Assembly (NCBI GenBank): GCA_018401705.1
Contig: JAGYKL010000008.1
Span: 75,688-139,687 of the forward strand
Source of the DNA: Bacteroidia bacterium
Lineage (GTDB): Bacteria; Bacteroidota; Bacteroidia; M30B66
Length of the DNA: 64,000 nt
Direction of reading: 5' to 3'
Position 1 is the stretch's first letter. The number at the start of each line of letters is the position of its first letter. The position numbers were made by a program, and so were the translations under genes. The notes under the pieces were generated by a model that saw nothing but the letters and a program-made list of their open reading frames with translations, made no database searches and was not told where the DNA came from. Shown here in pieces: positions 2,125 to 49,915 of the stretch.

Positions 2125-2767
2125 ATGAAATCATTTGAACGATTGTTACTCGACAACAAAGCCTGGGCTTCGGATAAATTAATGCAGGATGAAAAGTTCT
2201 TCGAAAATCAAGCTCATGCACAAAAACCTGAGTTCTTTTGGATTGGCTGCTCCGATAGTCGCGTGCCAGCAAATGAAGTCACCAATACTGAATCTGGCGA
2301 GATTTTCGTGCATAGAAATGTAGCAAACATGGTGGTTAACACCGACTTAAATCTTCTTTCAGTCTTGCAATATGCGGTTGATGTGCTTGAGGTTAAGCAC
2401 GTAATCGTTTGTGGACATTACGGCTGTGGCGGAGTTAAAGCTGCTCTAACCAATGGTTCTTATGGCACTCAATAAATGGCTCAGAAACATCAAAGATGTT
2501 TACCGATTTCATCGGGAAGAAGTCGACGTTATTAAAGATGAGCAATTGAGACTCAATAAAATGATTGAACTTAATGTTCAGGAGCAAGTCATGAATCTGG
2601 CTAAAACATCTATCATTCAAAAAGCCTGGCACAAAAGAAAAGGCCCTCAGCTTCATGGTTGGGTTTATGGCTTAAACGATGGAATACTTCATGACATCAT
2701 AGATCTTGATTATACTTTCGAAGTTGACCCTATTTACCGTTTTACCACTAATGAACTCGAAGCTTAA
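2125..2767 (+). pseudogene. Beta-class carbonic anhydrase, one frameshift
   Basis: Interconverts CO2 and bicarbonate in the cytoplasm. The zinc ligands of the beta class are visible: Cys42, Asp44 and Arg46 in CSDSR, then His98 and Cys101 in CGHYGCGG. The first frame ends at 2475 just after GSYGT. The rest ([14 protein letters not shown] to FTTNELEA, ending at 2767) continues in another frame, so a single indel lies near 2465-2470. Joined, it gives about 214 residues, the normal length for the family. It directly follows the SulP gene and is probably in one operon with it. The break is probably a sequence error, because both halves are well conserved. Confidence 0.87.
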
Positions 2768-2797
2768 TTACTAACTTAGCGGCCCCAATACATTAAA

Positions 2798-3544
2798 ATG
2801 GCAGGACACAGTAAATGGGCCAATATTAAGCACCGAAAAGGAGCTCAGGATAAACGGAGAGCTAAAGTATTTACTCGTATTCTGAGAGAAATCATGATCT
2901 CAGTTAAGGTTGGAACTCCAGACCCGGATTCAAATCCTCGCTTACGCTTAGCTATTCAAAATGCAAAAGGTGCGAACATTCCCAAAGACACAATCCAAAG
3001 AAATATTGACAAAGCTGCCGGCAAAGACGCCGACAATTATTCCGAACCAACTTACGAAGGTTACGGTCCATCAGGAATTGCAGTGTTTGTTGAATGCGCA
3101 ACTGACAATCTCAACAGGACCGTTCAGGATGTTAGAATGGTGTTTAATAAATACGGCGGAAACCTGGGCACAAACGGCTCATTAAGCTTTATTTTCGATA
3201 GAATGGGCGTTTTCACAATTCCTAAAGGGAAGCTTGATGAAGACGAATTTACCATGGAAATGATCGATGCCAATGCCAGCGAAGTAGAGCTTGAAGATGA
3301 TATATTCACCGTTTACGTCCCCCTTCGACTCTTTTTTGGTGAAATGCAACGAAAACTCGAACAACTGGGTATCGAAGCTGAAAACGCATCTTTACAGAGA
3401 ATTCCAAAAGAAAGAACCAAACTCGACATTGAATCTGCCAAAAAGCACTGAAATTAATTGAAATGATGGATGACCCTCGACGATGTTCAGGAAGTTTATC
3501 ACAACCTTGAGTTCACCGAAGAACTCGCCAACTCAATGGAATAA
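2798..3544 (+). pseudogene. YebC/PmpR-family regulator (TACO1-like), two frameshifts near the C-terminus
   Basis: The N-terminus MAGHSKWANIKHRKGAQDKR is diagnostic of the YebC/TACO1 family, about 240-250 residues long. Members act as transcription regulators or as aids to translation of proline-rich stretches. The continuous frame stops at 3451 after 217 residues, but the expected C-terminal helix continues in other frames. One shift falls in the lysine/alanine codons near 3445 and one extra C near 3474, after which DDVQEVYHNLEFTEELANSME runs to a TAA at 3542-3544. That stop overlaps the start of the next gene in a TAATG. Both shifts are most simply consensus errors. Confidence 0.88.
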
Positions 3545-5107
3545 TGGAACAACAAATTGCAACAACCAAGACCATGCAGGATAAAATTGAAGATTTAGAA
3601 GAAGAAAAAGCAAAGCTCTACTAGGTGGTGGCGCCAAACGCATTGAATCTCAGCATTCAAAAGGAAAGCTGAAGAGAGAATTGCCGTGTTACTCGATGAG
3701 GGCTCGTTCGAAGAAATTGGTCAACTAGTAACCCACCGAAGCACCAATTTTGGTCTTGAAAACCAGGTATTTTATGGTGATGGCGTAATTACCGGCTATG
3801 GCACTGTGCACGGAAGAACAGTTTATGTTTTTGCTCAGGACTTCACCGTTTTCGGTGGCTCGCTAGCCGAAGCTCTGCCGAAAGATTTGCCGTATTATGG
3901 ATTTAGCTATGCAAAATGGCGCTCCCGTTATTGGCTTAAAATGACTCTGGCGGGGCTCGTATCAGGAAGGCGTTGTTTCACTTGGTGGTTACGCCGATAT
4001 CTTCTACAAAAAACACACTTGCTTCTGGCGTTATTCCACAAATTTCTGCCATCATGGGCCCATGTGCCGGAGGAGCTGTTTATTCTCCAGCTATCACCGA
4101 TTTCATCCTGATGGTTGAAGATAACTCCTACATGTTTGTTACAGGACCAAATGTGGTAAAAACCGTCACCCATGAAGAAGTAACTTCCGAAGAACTTGGA
4201 GGTGCATCCGCGCATAGCGCGTAAAATCAGGTGTAACCCATTTTCTTCCCAAATGGGGTAGCATGCATCGAGGATATTAAAAAACTGCTGAGCTACATTC
4301 CATCAAATTGCGAGGAAGAAGCTCCAAGATTGCCTTATCAGCCTGCAAATGAAAACGTCCGGCTTTAAATTCAATTATTCTGGATAATCCAAATCAGCCT
4401 ACGACATTCGCGAAGTAATTGATGAAGTTATCGACAACGATACTTTCTTCTTCGAAGTACATAAAAACTTTGCTGAGAATATAGTTGTTGGCTTCGCCCG
4501 CCTGGGCGGAAGAAGTATCGGCATCGTAGCAAATCAACCTGCGTTTTTTAGCAGGTGTTCTCGATATTAAATCATCTCAAAAAGCTGCAAGGTTCGTGCG
4601 TTTCTGCGATTGTTTTAACATTCCATTGCTTGTGTTTGAGATGTGCCGGGCTTTCTTCCGGGTACCGACCAGGAGTGGAACGGAATCATTACCAATGGCG
4701 CTAAACTGCTGTATGCATTTTGTGAAGCAACCGTGCCAAGAATTACCGTAATTACCCGCAAAGCCTACGGCGGTGCTTATGATGTAATGAATTCTAAACA
4801 TATTGGAGCTGATATGAATTATGCCTGGCCTTCAGCCGAGATCGCTGTGATGGGAGCCAAAGGAGCCGCAGAAATTATTTTCCGCAATGAAATTAAAGAA
4901 GCGCCTATCCCTGAAGAAAAATGGCAGGAAAAAGAAAAAGAATACGCCGATTTGTTTGCCAATCCATACAATGCAGCTGCACGCGGATACGTTGATGAAG
5001 TTATTCACCCTGAGCAAACTCGCGAAAAGCTTATTAAGTCTTTCAAAATGCTTGAGAATAAGGTAGCTACACTTCCACGTAAGAAACACGGCAACATCCC
5101 CTTGTAA
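3544..5107 (+). pseudogene. Acyl-CoA carboxylase carboxyltransferase (beta) subunit, PccB-like, multiply frameshifted
   Basis: Carboxyltransferase subunit of a biotin-dependent acyl-CoA carboxylase, probably propionyl-CoA to methylmalonyl-CoA. Joined frames give the expected order: [49 protein letters not shown], the first oxyanion-hole region with [16 protein letters not shown] (about 4050-4110), then [14 protein letters not shown] (4645-4690) and a clean C-terminal half [19 protein letters not shown] to HGNIPL. Shifts occur near 3622, 3672, 3875, 3955, 4222, 4345, 4390, 4550 and 4640; from about 4640 to the stop the frame is intact. The ATG overlaps the yebC stop by one base. The biotin-carrying alpha subunit is not in the window. 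Confidence 0.85.
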
Positions 5108-7717: not shown

Positions 7718-10700
7718 ATGAATCTAAATCAGGCCCTTTCCTTCATTCTAATTTTCTTCTTCTCTTGCGCATTCACACAGCCTACTTTTGAATGGGTAAA
7801 CTCAATGGGAACAATCTCATCCGATGTAGGTAAAGAGGTTGTTGTTGATAACGATGGAAACTCTTATGTAATTGGAACGTTTCGCCTCGTAGCAGATTTC
7901 GACCCAGGTCCCGATGTTTTAAATTTAACCGCATTCGGCTCTAAAGATGTATTTGTCCAGAAATTAGACCCCAATGGCAACCTACTATGGGTGAAGCAAT
8001 TCGGAGGAACAAATGAAGATGATGCAAGTTCAATTGTTATTGATTCAAATGCCGACATTATCATTACCGGAGAGTTTAAAGGAACGGCAGACTTTGACCC
8101 AAATGCTGGCACAAACACCCTCACTGCAACGGGAACTTACTTCGATACTTTCATCGCCAAATTAGATAATAACGGCAACCTTATTTGGGTAAAACAGCTA
8201 GATGCAACCCATCACTGCTATGCCGAAGACATCGACGTGAATTCAAATAATGAAATCCTCTTAACCGGAAGGTGGTTCGAAACTGCCGATTTCAATCCGG
8301 GTTTTGATGTAAATAACCTAACAGCTCAGGGGATAGGCTGGGATATCTATATTCTCAAGTTAACTTCAAATGGAGATTTCGTTTGGGTAGTTCCTATTGC
8401 TGGAACTGACAACAATTACGTTCAGGCAATTAAAGTTGACTTAAATGATGACCTTTTAATATGTGGTTATTACTATGAAACTATTGATTTAAACCCAGGC
8501 CCTGGAACAGATACTCATATAGCTAACCCAAATCAAGAAGATATGTTTATCGTTAAACTTGACACCGATGGCCTGTACTTATGGGGAAAAAACTTCTCGT
8601 CTGGTTCAACCGAAATATCAAATAGCATTGAAGTTGATCTGAATAACGATTACTATTTTGGAGGGTACTTTTCTGGCTCATTAGATTTTGATCCGGGGCC
8701 TGGTAACACCACACTAAACCCATTAAATCAAGTCACTGATGCTTTCTTGCTAAAACTAAATTCTGCAGGAATATTCCAGTGGGTCAAACAAATACAAGGA
8801 ACTAGTGATGGAGAGATTTTCTCAATTGCTCTAGATAACCAAGGGGATGTAATCATTGCTGGGGTCTTTTCTCTAACCGCCGACTTCAATCCCGGGCCAC
8901 CTGTTGAAAATATCACCTCAGTTGGTGGACGAGATATATTCTTTCAAAAATTATCGCCTGATGGGTCATACCATTGGACCTTAACTTTAGGTGGGTTTGA
9001 TGATGATTACATCAATTCTATTGCAGTGAGAAATGGAGATATTCATGCCACAGGAGTTTTTAGAAGCACTGCTGATTTTAATCCGGGACTTGCAGAAGCC
9101 AATAAAACATCTAATGGTCTTGATGATATTTTTGTCCTTAAGCTTGGCGAATGCACTCCGGGCACCTTAACTCTTAATCAATCCAATTTACCCGACTTAA
9201 CTGGCGAATGCTTGGTGGCCGCTCCCTCTCCCCCAAAAGCAAGTGACTGCGGACAAACTTACGACGGCGTTTCAGACGTTTCTTTCCCAATCACTACTCT
9301 TGGAACAACCACAATAACTTGGACTTACGATGATGGAAACGGAAACACTCTAACCCAAACACAAGAAGTTATAATCAATGATGTTTCTGCGCCTTTGGCG
9401 GATATTGCTACTTTACCTATAGTAACTTCCGAATGCTCTGTATCAAGCTTAACTGCCCCATCAGCAAGCGATAACTGCGCTGGAACAATCACTGCAACAC
9501 AAAACACTTCACTTCCAATAACTGCTTCAACAACCATCAATTGGACTTACGATGATGGAAACGGAAATACATCAACTCAAACACAAGAGGTTATAATCAA
9601 TGATGTTTCTGCGCCTATGGCTGATGTTGCTACTTTACCCAATGTAACTTCCGAATGTTCTGTATCAAGCTTAACGGCACCAACTGCAACCGACAACTGC
9701 GCTGGAACAATCACTGCAACACAAAACTCTTCACTTCCAATAACTGCTTCAACAACCATCAATTGGTCTTACGATGATGGAAACGGAAACACTTTAACCC
9801 AAACGCAAGAAGTCGTAATCAATGATGTTTCTGCGCCTTTGGCGGATATTGCTACTTTACCTATAGTAACTTCCGAATGCTCTGTAACAAGCTTAACGGC
9901 ACCAACTGCAAGCGATAACTGCGCTGGAACAATCACTGCAACACAAAACTCTTCACTTCCAATAACTGCTTCAACAACCATCAATTGGACTTACGATGAT
10001 GGAAACGGAAATACTTCAACCCAAACGCAAGAAGTCTTAATCAATGATGTTTCTGCGCCTTTGGCGGATATTGCTACTTTACCCATAGTAACTTCCGAAT
10101 GCTCTGTAACAAGTTTATCTGCCCCAACTGCAAGCGATAACTGCTCTGGAACTATCTCTGCAACGCAAAACACTTCACTTCCTATAACTGCTTCAACAAC
10201 CATCTCTTGGACTTACGATGATGGAAACGGAAATACCTCAACTCAAAACCAAGAAGTTATTATAAGTCATATAGACAGTAGTATTACACAAATTGATGCG
10301 TTTACTTTAGGCGCAGAAGCTGCCGGCTTTACTTACCAATGGGTTGACTGTGATAATGATAATCAACCTATCCCAGGAGAAACAAACCAAATTTTTACAG
10401 CAGCAAATGTGGGGAATTACGCAGTTGAAATCAGTAATGAAACTTGCTTTGTCACATCCGACTGCATAAGCCTATTAACGGTTGGCATTGAAACTATTAG
10501 CACCGCTAATGTATCTGTATTTCCCAATCCAACTAATGGTGTTTTCTTTATCAATAGCGAAACTAATGACTTCAATGCTATTGTAGTTAGAAATGTTCTA
10601 GGTCAAAAAATAGAGGAATTCTCATTTAGTCCTCAGCAATCACAAAAATTTGAATTAACTCATCAATCGGGAATATACTTTATTGAAATTGTGCTAGACT

Positions 10701-42566: not shown

Positions 42567-43862
42567 ATGATTAAGAATGTGAAGGTAGGCGCTTGGGTGA
42601 TAATACTAATTATTCTGATTTCGGCAAATGTGTTTGCCCAAAGTGTTCCTGCAGGGATTAATTATCAGGCTATTGCAAGAAATGCATCAGGAAGTGTTTT
42701 TGTAAACTCCAATGTTGCTGTTAGAATTAGCATTCTTCAAGGCTCGAGCACTGGAACAACTCAATATTCTGAAACGCATCAGGCTTTAACCAATCAATTT
42801 GGATTATTCAATTTAAAAATAGGGAATGGCACTCCCCTATCGGGTGATTTTAACTCGATTCCATGGAGTGAAGCTAATCAATGGGTAAAGATTGAAGTTG
42901 ACCCTTCGGGTGGAACAAATTATCAGGATGTTGGAACTTCGGAATTACTGAGTGTACCATTTGCTCTTTATGCACAGTCATCAGGCTCAGGTGGTGGAGT
43001 TGGCCCGCAAGGTGCGCAAGGTGAAACTGGCCCGCAAGGTCCTGCCGGAAATGATGGAGCTCCCGGGCCACAAGGCGAAACTGGTCCGCAAGGTCCTGCC
43101 GGAAATGATGGCGCTCCCGGTCCTCAAGGCCCGCAGGGAGAAACTGGTCCGCAAGGTCCTGCCGGAAATGATGGCGCCCAGGGGCCACAAGGAGAAACTG
43201 GCCCGCAAGGCCCTCAAGGTGAAACTGGCCCGCAAGGTCCTGCCGGAACAGGCGACGGTTCTCCGAATCTGGTTTCTTCAGCATCAATAGCTTTTGGTAG
43301 CCAAGCCGGAAGCTTACCTACAGCAGTTAATCTTGGAGGAGCCGGCACTGCAAATGCTGCCAGCCTTTGGATTGAGAACGCAACTTCGCAATGCGCGGTT
43401 TGCACTCAAGTGTATGCTCAACCTTTACCTAATTTTTCTTCCCAAGCCGTAGTGCTTGATATACCCATTCAAGAATATACACTTGAAGATGATGGTGAAG
43501 ACGGCAAGGGCATTTTGATACTTGCTAATGTAACAGTAAAGTCGACAAATAATGCTTCTTCCTTAGGCAACAGCAATCGCTTTAGTATTTGGTTGCAGCG
43601 CTCAACCGACCCAAGTTTCAATGCAAATGTTACCAATGTTTATCGGATTGAAGATGGACTCTCAGGTGGCGTTAACAATATTCCTTCAGTGGTGACTTTA
43701 GGTTCGGGTATTGCTTGCACGAATATCATTTACCCCGACACGAATCTTAGTCCGGGGACATACTATTACAGACTTGTTTATCAAAGCATTATGGGCTCAA
43801 ACAATGGACAAACAGTTTTTGCACAAGACCGAAACATGGTATTAATGCAAATCAAACAATAA
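42567..43862 (+). CDS. Collagen-like secreted protein
   Basis: A 431-residue protein with signal peptide (ending VFAQ), an N-terminal beta domain found at the front of many Bacteroidota surface proteins ([16 protein letters not shown] to SVPFALYAQ), a Gly-X-Y stretch of about 27 triplets (residues about 146-226, dominated by GPQ, GPA, GET, GND), and a C-terminal globular domain of about 200 residues. The triplets should fold as a trimeric collagen-type triple helix, with the C-terminal domain as probable trimeriser. No T9SS sorting domain is apparent. It is monocistronic, bounded by terminators. Confidence 0.85.
43002..43247 (+). repeat. Gly-X-Y collagen-like triplet region
   Basis: Nine-base codon-triplet repeats arranged in larger near-identical units that include GGTCCTGCCGGAAATGATGG, reused four times. 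The higher-order repetition implies expansion by duplication. Confidence 0.85.
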
Positions 43863-48615: not shown

Positions 48616-48692
48616 AATCAATTTTTTTATTTCTACTTAGTTTCAACTTTAGGTTTGTTTTGACGAATTTTACTAAACTACCGTGAGTAGAC

Positions 48693-48751
48693 TGACTGAA
48701 TTACATTAAATATCGTCAACACATTGACTGAATTACATTAAATATCGTCAA
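48693..48751. repeat. Two tandem 27-bp repeats with inverted ends
   Basis: Identical 27-base copies at 48693-48719 and 48725-48751, separated by 5 bases (period 32). Each copy begins TGAC and ends GTCA, so it is a partial palindrome (TTGAC...GTCAA for the second). They lie directly upstream of the AAA/DUF4143 gene's promoter. Confidence 0.85.
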
Positions 48752-48769
48752 TAGCATTTGAAAAAGATG

Positions 48770-48777
48770 TAAATTTG
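48770..48777 (+). promoter_or_regulatory. -7 element TAAATTTG of the AAA/DUF4143 gene
   Basis: Exact TAnnTTTG, ending four bases before the GTG start, so the mRNA would be leaderless or nearly so. Its -33 region would overlap the second 27-bp repeat. Confidence 0.55.
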
Positions 48778-48781
48778 TGAT

Positions 48782-49915
48782 GTGAAAATCACGAGAGCCA
48801 TCGAAGCCAGATTGCGTAAGGCCCTGAAGCCCAATAAAGTGGTTCTGCTTCTTGGTGCACGAAGGACTGGAAAAACCTGGTTTTTGAAGAATCTGCTTCC
48901 CAAACTCGAAATGCCGTATCTCTATTTGAATGGCGATGATACTTCGGTTCAAGCCATTTTCAAAGAAAGAACGGTTGCAAATTATGCTCGCTTAATTGGC
49001 GATTATAAGCTTTTGGTGATTGATGAAGCTCATCGAATTCCTGAAATTGGCTGGAATTTAAAGTTGATGGTAGATGAGTTGGAAGGCTTGCACATTATTG
49101 CAACTGGCTCATCCGTCTTTGATTTAAGAGCAGGAACCGGCGAGCCACTTACAGGACGAAGAACTGAATTGCTTCTACATCCTTTTGCTCAAATCGAATA
49201 CAGTACTCAAGAAAGCTTGGTTGAAACTCAATCACGTTTGGAGGAGCGCATGATTTATGGCAATTATCCTGAGTTGATTCACCTGAGTTCGAATGATGAA
49301 AAGGAAGATTACCTGCGCGAAATGGTTGCGTCGTATTTGCTTAAGGATATTCTAGAGTTCGAAGGAATACGAAATTCTTCAAAAGTCAGTGATTTACTTC
49401 GCTTGATTGCATTCCAGCCAGGAAAGGAAGTCTCGAACGATGAATTAAGTCGTGCACTTGGCATTAGTAAAAATACTGTTGATCGCTATCTCGATTTGTT
49501 GCAGAAGGTATTTGTGCTGGTCAAAGTGCCCGGTTTTAGTCGCAATTTGAGAAAAGAAGTAACTCGACATTCACGCTATTACTTTGTAGATAATGGAGTT
49601 CGCAATGCCTTGATTAATAATTTCAACCCTTTGAGCATGCGTGCTGATACAGGAGAATTATGGGAAAATTATGTGATTTTGCAGAGGCTTAAATATCAAT
49701 CGATTAAGAACGTGGCATCGGCGAATTATTTCTGGCGCACATATCAGCAGCAAGAGATAGATTGGGTTGAAGATCGCGGCGGGAAACTCTATGCGTATGA
49801 AATAAAGTGGAAAGACTCTAACAAAACCAAGGTCCCATCGGCCTGGAAGGCAGCTTACCCTGAAGCAGAATTCAATGTTGTTACACCGCAAAACTATCTC
49901 GACTGGATTCTATGA
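48782..49915 (+). CDS. AAA ATPase with DUF4143 (AAA_14) domain
   Basis: 377 residues. P-loop LLLGARRTGKTW near residue 20, Walker B LLVIDEAHR, sensor-like IIATGSS, then the GEPLTGRRTELLLHPF segment characteristic of AAA_14. A winged-helix-like middle (SNDELSRALGISKNTVDRYLDLL) precedes the C-terminal DUF4143 with a nuclease-fold-like WVEDRGGKLYAYEIKWK. This widespread accessory family has no settled function. GTG start; the stop overlaps dgkA in ATGA. The upstream tandem repeat and patchy distribution of the family suggest it is a mobile or recently gained gene (inference). Confidence 0.88.
   Translation: MKITRAIEARLRKALKPNKVVLLLGARRTGKTWFLKNLLPKLEMPYLYLNGDDTSVQAIFKERTVANYARLIGDYKLLVIDEAHRIPEIGWNLKLMVDELEGLHIIATGSSVFDLRAGTGEPLTGRRTELLLHPFAQIEYSTQESLVETQSRLEERMIYGNYPELIHLSSNDEKEDYLREMVASYLLKDILEFEGIRNSSKVSDLLRLIAFQPGKEVSNDELSRALGISKNTVDRYLDLLQKVFVLVKVPGFSRNLRKEVTRHSRYYFVDNGVRNALINNFNPLSMRADTGELWENYVILQRLKYQSIKNVASANYFWRTYQQQEIDWVEDRGGKLYAYEIKWKDSNKTKVPSAWKAAYPEAEFNVVTPQNYLDWIL

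What the first reader, a model, noticed from the sequence alone, without database searches (positions are those of the whole stretch)
48693..48784. Tandem 27-bp partial palindromes abutting the promoter of an AAA/DUF4143 gene
Two identical copies with inverted ends, period 32 (about three helical turns), place identical faces of the DNA on the same side just before a leaderless promoter. This is the geometry of cooperative operator sites, or of a remnant integration or recombination site used by a mobile gene. The ATPase is an accessory family inserted between suf and dgkA.
Basis: partly seen in the sequence, partly recalled or inferred. Interest (0 to 1): 0.52.

Follow-up and report, generated by a model that had tools for sequence, protein, structure and literature searches.

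The report
Self-operator arrays of a nuclease ATPase
The tandem repeat is a row of DNA-binding sites, 32 bases apart, in front of a gene for an ATPase-nuclease; relatives carry the same row in different spelling, and three amino acids of the protein largely predict the spelling, so the protein probably reads and controls its own promoter.

Summary
The repeat is real: two identical 27-mers at 48693-48719 and 48725-48751 (period 32), unique in the genome. It is one case of an architecture shared by the gene's family (AAA_14, winged helix, DUF4143; PADLOC candidate PDC-S01). Among 73 homologues, offset 32 is the best of 93 upstream in 60; in a second set, 35 of 48. Controls: 0/29 and 1/121 other genes. 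The spelling differs from gene to gene and co-varies with three neighbouring residues of the recognition helix: N231 with half-site base 6, K230 with base 7, S229 with base 5. SKN goes with TGAC, SRN with TGAA, DKN with TCAC (second set: 16 of 16 loci with these triplets). The array is phased to the -7 box, and exact sites occur only at the ATPase's own promoter in 11 genomes. Best reading: a private, cooperative, autoregulatory operator, probably repressing. Distant relatives carry one long promoter palindrome instead. Unexpectedly, 22 of 140 loci are flanked by direct repeats (sham controls 2 of 276), so the unit may be mobile; the window copy shows none. Binding, repression, nuclease activity and movement are untested.

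The parts
48693..48719 (+). first exact 27-mer copy (TGAC half-site, A/T-rich middle, GTCA half-site)
48725..48751 (+). second exact 27-mer copy, 32 bp downstream
48709..48734 (.). best full dimer-type site AATATCGTCAACACATTGACTGAATT (GTCA-N6-TGAC centred at 48721.5), one mismatch to AATTNNGTCAN6TGACNNAATT
48677..48702 (.). degenerate dimer-type site, centre 48689.5; only its right half-site (48693) scores
48741..48766 (.). degenerate dimer-type site next to the promoter, centre 48753.5; its left half-site scores
48661..48670 (+). further upstream half-site TGACGAATTT, in register at 32 bp
   Evidence: half-site at -119
48770..48777 (+). TAAATTTG, Bacteroidota-type -7 box, starting 16 bp right of a dyad axis (the modal phase of the family)
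   Evidence: the box consensus is recalled knowledge
48782..49915 (+). ATPase gene, 377 aa: AAA_14, winged HTH (about 199-268, recognition helix 230-242), DUF4143 with E325/D327/E340/K342
49466..49474 (+). codons of the specificity triplet S229-K230-N231 at the start of the recognition helix
   Evidence: coordinates by arithmetic from 48782

Best explanation
The repeat is an autoregulatory operator array. The ATPase encoded just downstream binds it with its own winged helix-turn-helix. Each 32-bp unit holds a pair of half-sites (here TGAC) whose centres are 11 bp, about one helical turn, apart across one axis; successive pairs follow every three turns, so bound dimers would line up on one face of the helix and can cooperate. 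Residues 229, 230 and 231 at the start of the recognition helix go with half-site bases 5, 7 and 6. The array covers the -33 region and brackets the -7 box, so binding most likely represses the gene until the protein is titrated, or is switched by nucleotide or by an invader signal. Shown here: architecture, family-wide period, private sites, residue-base co-variation, promoter phasing. Inferred: binding itself, dimers, cooperativity, repression rather than activation, and the trigger.
For: Period: offset 32 best of 93 in 60/73 homologues and 35/48 in a second set; score 13 or more in 49/73 upstream, 3/73 downstream, 0/73 gene body, 0/73 shuffled; other genes 0/29 (DUF2480) and 1/121 (neighbour ORFs). 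Code: in the first set the three columns best associated with the half-site core, after removing overall similarity, were N231, S229, K230. Joint set of 91 loci: of 4912 residue-base pairs, N231/base 6 ranks 1, K230/base 7 ranks 2, S229/base 5 ranks 5; S229 has G in 34/39, D229 has C in 36/36, K230 has C in 45/49, R230 has A in 17/22, N231 has A in 42/44, K231 has C in 12/12. Second set: same-triplet training loci that were less related beat the nearest relative with another triplet in 16/17, p = 4.6e-5; SKN-TGAC 10/10, DKN-TCAC 4/4, SRN-TGAA 2/2. Changes on one branch: 231/base 6 14 (3.2 expected, p 7.9e-9, best of 921 pairs), 230/base 7 10 (2.7 expected, p 2.3e-5, second of 921). Promoter phase: -7 box starts 14-18 bp from a dyad axis, modulo 32, in 53/68 loci with a box. 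Private: all 8 zero-mismatch sites in 11 genomes lie upstream of an ATPase; the rest is near the control rate. Model: recognition helix at 230-242, pLDDT 92. Loci that failed the array threshold still show the triplet's core by eye (L133, L135, L127, L066, L176, L151; L136 does not).
Against: No binding or expression data. The window's own array is short and its dyad weak. 13/73 and 13/48 loci do not have 32 as best offset. S229/base 5 co-changes are few (3 shared among 12 and 11 changes, p 0.03), because S and D largely follow clades. Two C-terminal residues (Y321, Q322) also rank high (3 and 4) with outer bases 13 and 16, probably clade signal. In the branch test L277/base 7 ranks third (p 3.8e-5). 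The choice between the two dyad axes used a profile trained on the first set. Set B shows no 32-bp period (1/43). The sigma-70 scan gave nothing useful.
Confidence: 0.8

Rival explanations
1. The array is primarily the recognition end of a mobile unit (array + ATPase): the protein binds it to move or copy itself, and regulation is secondary.
For: Direct repeats of 33 bits or more flank 22/140 loci, against 0/140 mismatched pairs, 0/28 and 0/150 sham genes, 1/47 and 1/51 sham segments. Some duplicate gene ends: 73 bp (99%) of the 5' end of a pseudouridine synthase gene (L069), 53 bp of the 3' end of mnmE (L202), 38 bp of an ORF 3' end (L024). Some have the array on both sides (L134, L168, L111, own paralogue L033; B: L023, L073). 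Patchy: 38/296 genomes; on 544/72,556 plasmids at any similarity.
Against: 118/140 loci, including the window, show no such repeat; repeat length, identity (78-100%) and distance from the gene vary; no inverted termini; the array is normally on the promoter side only and is phased to the -7 box; no empty zero-mismatch array found in 11 genomes.
Confidence: 0.25
2. The array is the operator of some other regulator, and the ATPase gene is only its target.
For: Operators are usually found by their geometry alone, which does not name the binder.
Against: Half-site bases follow residues of the ATPase's own recognition helix across the arrays, including second-set tests.
Confidence: 0.05
3. A chance tandem duplication (slippage) without function.
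For: The window has only two good copies and they are identical, so the duplication looks recent.
Against: Exactly the same 32-bp period with unrelated sequence in 60/73 and 35/48 homologues; 0/29 and 1/121 in other genes.
Confidence: 0.03
4. The protein activates rather than represses from the array.
For: Arrays extend up to 6.8 copies upstream of the promoter, more than a simple block needs, and no good -33 element was identified.
Against: The promoter-proximal site overlaps the -33 region and the -7 box lies on the other dyad axis; in several loci the site lies at the start codon.
Confidence: 0.2

Closest known systems
PDC-S01 (PADLOC phage-defence candidate)
   Same: The window protein matches PDLC04789 over 1-376, E 6.5e-152. 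PMC12988326 (passages read) describes PDC-S01 as an ATPase fused to a PD-(D/E)XK member and the fourth most common predicted defence in prokaryotes.
   Different: [quoted passage not shown] Defence was not tested here.
RptR repressor of phage-defence islands (PMC12255303, passages read)
   Same: Autorepressor of a defence locus that binds direct repeats containing a palindrome over the promoter.
   Different: Separate small repressor, 9-bp repeats, one conserved site (TAGCTA); here the regulator is the ATPase-nuclease itself, the period is 32 bp and each gene has its own site.
Archaeal ATPases SSO1545 (2fna) and PABY2304 (2qen)
   Same: Best structural matches of the model, Z 15.9 (rmsd 3.8, 259 aligned) and 16.5 (rmsd 3.6, 258 aligned).
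   Different: 19-21% identity; aligned range ends near residue 279, so the C-terminal domain is not covered.
STAND/NLR ATPases (RPP1, CED-4, Apaf-1)
   Same: Same order ATPase, helical domain, winged helix; Z about 12.7-13.8, rmsd 4.2-5.3, 246-265 aligned.
   Different: In those the winged helix is not known to me as a sequence-specific DNA reader (recalled); STAND-specific motifs not tested.

Membership tests
PDC-S01 | Match to PADLOC PDC-S01 profile over full length | tested here: met
   PDLC04789 E 6.5e-152, residues 1-376 of 377
PDC-S01 | Anti-phage activity | not testable with these tools
   No activity data for this protein
AAA_14-DUF4143 ATPase | AAA_14 and DUF4143 over Pfam cut-offs | tested here: met
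   82.7 bits (cut-off 27) and 137.1 bits (cut-off 28.1)
PD-(D/E)XK nuclease superfamily | Conserved D...ExK motif | tested here: met
   E325, D327, E340 invariant, K342 90% or more in 54 sequences; 25-row domain alignment agrees
PD-(D/E)XK nuclease superfamily | Fold | tested here: inconclusive
   Domain model pLDDT 80; best hits Cdn1, Can2, McrC but only E 0.01 and worse
PD-(D/E)XK nuclease superfamily | DNA cleavage | not testable with these tools
   Needs an assay
Self-binding (autoregulatory) transcription factor | Dyad sites over its own promoter | tested here: met
Self-binding (autoregulatory) transcription factor | Recognition residues co-vary with site | tested here: met
Self-binding (autoregulatory) transcription factor | Binding and repression shown | not testable with these tools
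   Needs gel shift and reporter
STAND NTPase | Overall fold of ATPase-helical-winged helix module | tested here: met
   Z about 13-14 over about 250 residues; a shared fold shows no function
STAND NTPase | STAND-specific motifs and stimulus-driven oligomerisation | not tested
   -
Transposable or integrative element | Flanking direct repeats | tested here: inconclusive
   22/140 loci, not the window
Transposable or integrative element | Same site without the element in a relative | tested here: met
   G002 has DUF2480-dgkA without it; compatible with loss as well as gain
Transposable or integrative element | Terminal inverted repeats or an integrase of its own | tested here: not met
   Array on promoter side only in the window; single-gene unit

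The most novel reading that the evidence does not exclude
The abundant PDC-S01 genes are single-gene mobile units rather than, or besides, defence genes: operator array plus ATPase-nuclease move together as about 1.3 kb and leave long target duplications, and the private operator with its three-residue code defines an immunity or copy-number group, as phage repressors do. Within a genome, paralogues shared the triplet in 1 of 31 pairs (204 of 2670 between genomes), which points that way but is too few to prove it.
Probability: 0.25. Interest if true: 0.9.

Novelty: new variant of a known kind. Interest (0 to 1): 0.72.

Why it matters
PDC-S01 is reported as one of the most frequent predicted defence genes (fourth commonest in prokaryotes, PMC12988326; the most frequent individual locus in a rumen survey, PMC13356809; passages read), and the passages read give no mechanism for it. 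A private operator array with a residue-to-base code gives a direct experimental handle: the binding site of many of these proteins should be predictable from three residues, expression can be measured through the array, and the trigger can be screened for. A code in which S/D229, K/R230 and N231 each go with one base is also a clean natural example for winged-helix specificity. If the flanking repeats mean mobility, counts of 'defence systems' that include PDC-S01 would need rethinking.

Tried and rejected
The automatic repeat finders missed the repeat (none; not among 29 rows); an own script and a pattern search were used instead. A viral-contig scan found no relative. The term AAA_14 in the paper search matches unrelated text; DUF234 gave secretion papers; COG1373 gave 7 papers, listing only; DUF4143 gave 1 paper; PDC-S01 gave 3, of which I read passages of two; a six-term search gave none. 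These searches support only that nothing was found on operators of this family in the held library, which has no preprints.

Chance duplication was rejected on the family counts. A regulon was rejected for the genomes tested. An integration-site reading at this locus was rejected because no copy lies beyond the gene. Within-genome avoidance of equal triplets is only 1/31 against 7.6%, not significant by itself.

Rows dropped: of 131 loci, 2 gave no tblastn match (L102, L104) and 11 were partial, had no start or had under 200 bp upstream; of the 118 left, 2 were duplicates (L004, L160), leaving 73 in set A and 43 in set B. Of 50 new loci, L164 (already held) and L200 (short upstream) were dropped. 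Of 99 arrays, 8 with weak dyads were left out (55 of 63 used). In one search only 17 of 36 test arrays had a triplet seen in training. Set A downstream offset-32 hits of 9 or more: L107 (low complexity), L134 and L033 (own array on both sides), L067 (array of a divergent neighbour).

Full report
OBSERVATION. The two 27-mers are exact, at 48693-48719 and 48725-48751, 32 bp apart, unique in window and genome at up to 3 mismatches. They precede a 377-aa gene (48782-49915, GTG start) with AAA_14 and DUF4143, which overlaps dgkA by ATGA and follows DUF2480 of the suf cluster. Relative G001 has the ATPase at the same place with a longer 32-bp array; G002 has DUF2480 and dgkA adjacent without it.

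FAMILY-WIDE PERIOD. I collected homologues from 60 relative genomes (32 of 60 have one at E 1e-3 or less) and from the genome collection (59 loci). After removing partial and duplicate loci 116 remained: set A, 73 at 34% identity or more, and set B, 43 more distant. In set A offset 32 scores best of 93 offsets in 60 of 73; the mean score is 22.2 at 32, 9.9 at 64, 5.5 at 96, and 4.1 for the median offset. A score of 13 or more at offset 32 occurs in 49/73 upstream regions, 3/73 downstream, 0/73 gene bodies and 0/73 shuffles. In set B offset 32 is best in 1/43. Other genes: DUF2480 upstream 0/29, neighbouring ORFs 1/121. The period is constant but the sequence is not: TGAC, TGAA, TCAC, TTCC, TGTC, GATTATAATC and others. 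63 of 73 set A loci pass a score of 9, with 1.3 to 6.8 copies. Plasmid copies in Treponema (score 21) and Bacteroides uniformis (score 34) also show offset 32; one Bacteroides plasmid shows 33 and a Desulfosarcina plasmid shows none.

SET B. The distant relatives carry one long palindrome at the promoter: score 12 or more in 27/43 upstream, 5/43 downstream, 0/43 body, 0/258 dinucleotide shuffles; the longest are 59 bp. Three plasmid loci outside Bacteroidota (Thermus, Azotobacter, Agrobacterium) have palindromes of score 8 to 13.5 within 2 bp of the start codon; that is too few for a statistic.

THE CODE. For each array the unit was folded modulo 32, its dyad axis found, and a 16-base half-site extracted. 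After removing overall protein similarity, the three protein columns most associated with the half-site core (positions 3-9) were N231 (0.50), S229 (0.42) and K230 (0.29), three neighbours at the start of the recognition helix; the winged-helix region had partial r 0.31 and the AAA region 0.00 (55 of 63 arrays). The table is nearly readable by eye: SKN with TGAC, SRN with TGAA, HKN with TGCC, GKG with TGTC, DSK with TCC, and DKN with TCAC in proteins of 58% (L008) and 38% (L018) identity; two other DKN loci of that set, L013 and L069, gave no clear core.

SECOND-SET TEST. 50 further loci from other Bacteroidota gave 48 usable ones. Offset 32 was best in 35/48. Of 36 arrays, 17 had a triplet seen before. 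Training loci with the same triplet but less related matched better than the nearest relative with another triplet in 16 of 17 (Wilcoxon p 4.6e-5). SKN-TGAC held in 10/10, DKN-TCAC in 4/4, SRN-TGAA in 2/2. In the joint set of 91 arrays (about 77 effective), N231/base 6 ranks first of 4912 pairs (0.69), K230/base 7 second (0.61), S229/base 5 fifth (0.49); ranks 3 and 4 are Y321/base 13 and Q322/base 16, which I read as clade signal. On a tree built without the winged-helix region, changes of residue 231 and base 6 fall on the same branch 14 times (3.2 expected), residue 230 and base 7 10 times (2.7 expected), residue 229 and base 5 only 3 times (0.7 expected, p 0.03); L277/base 7 ranks third with p 3.8e-5. 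So bases 6 and 7 are supported by repeated change, base 5 mainly by the table.

PROMOTER AND PRIVACY. A TAnnTTTG box lies in the last 75 bp in 77/121 set A and second-set loci (4 in a control stretch); of 68 arrays with a box, 53 have it 14-18 bp right of a dyad axis modulo 32, and the window is at the modal 16. Half-site centres are 11 bp apart across that axis. In 11 genomes all 8 zero-mismatch sites of AATTNNGTCAN6TGACNNAATT lie just upstream of an ATPase; with 2 mismatches the remainder is near the reversed-pattern control.

PROTEIN. The model has pLDDT 92 with helices 199-210, 219-226, 230-242 and two following strands, a winged helix. Best structural matches are 2qen and 2fna (Z 16.5, 15.9) and then NLR/STAND ATPases (Z about 13-14). 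E325, D327, E340 are invariant and K342 nearly so. The C-terminal domain alone matches PD-(D/E)XK enzymes weakly.

FLANKING REPEATS. Comparing 1300 bp on either side of the gene, 22 of 140 loci have a direct repeat of 33 bits or more, against 0 of 140 mismatched pairs, 0/28 DUF2480 genes, 0/150 sham genes, 1/47 and 1/51 sham segments (with the sham segments' smaller windows the ATPase itself gives 5/49). Some repeats are the array itself (L134, L168, L033, L111, L023, L073). Others duplicate host sequence: 73 bp at 99% of the 5' end of a pseudouridine synthase gene, with the gene intact downstream (L069); 53 bp of the 3' end of mnmE (L202); 38 bp of an ORF's 3' end (L024); 107 bp at an ORF's 3' end (L185); 104 bp around what looks like a gene start (L128). 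The boundaries are not constant, so I do not call this a defined element.

MECHANISM. Most likely the ATPase dimer binds the array through the code above, copies stack every three turns, and the gene is repressed until the protein is titrated or switched. A Thermus AAA_14/DUF4143 gene, TT_P0211, rose 6.6-fold when a plasmid and Argonaute were both present (PMC4406477, passages), which would fit an inducible gene, but I did not confirm that it is the gene of L226 and the effect is indirect evidence at best.

LIMITS. Everything is comparative sequence analysis. The choice of dyad axis used a profile from the first set; the code's statistics correct for similarity only approximately. The most likely function of the protein (defence, selfish unit, or both) is open.

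Noticed in passing
L215 1425-1525 and 2690-2790 (G000 contig C36, own paralogue): The second ATPase of this genome (triplet GKD, CTGTC half-sites) has its array on both sides of the gene, 79% alike over 95 bp.
   Followed up: partly
L231 1890-5103 (G010 contig C57): Two ATPase genes of this kind sit on either side of a pseudouridine synthase gene; the 5' end of that gene (73 bp) is duplicated upstream of the first ATPase.
   Followed up: partly
L232 around 2558-3890 (G212 contig C22): An ATPase gene lies between two copies of the 3' end of mnmE (53 bp, 92%), which resembles the footprint of site-specific integration at a gene end.
   Followed up: partly
L026, about 10-130 bp upstream of the start: A set B gene has two 35-37 bp near-perfect palindromes of nearly the same sequence, 87 bp apart.
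   Followed up: no
L226 upstream of 1986 (Thermus thermophilus pTT27): TGAATGA-CTA-TCATTCA palindrome next to the start of an ATPase of this family; a paper reports induction of a Thermus AAA_14/DUF4143 gene by plasmid plus Argonaute.
   Followed up: partly
window 43008-43241: Tandem repeat with 54- and 117-bp periods and units like CAAGGCCCGCAAGGAGAAACTGGCCCG, collagen-like by eye.
   Followed up: no
window 9319-10260: Tandem array of 4.2 copies of a 222-bp unit, 91% alike.
   Followed up: no
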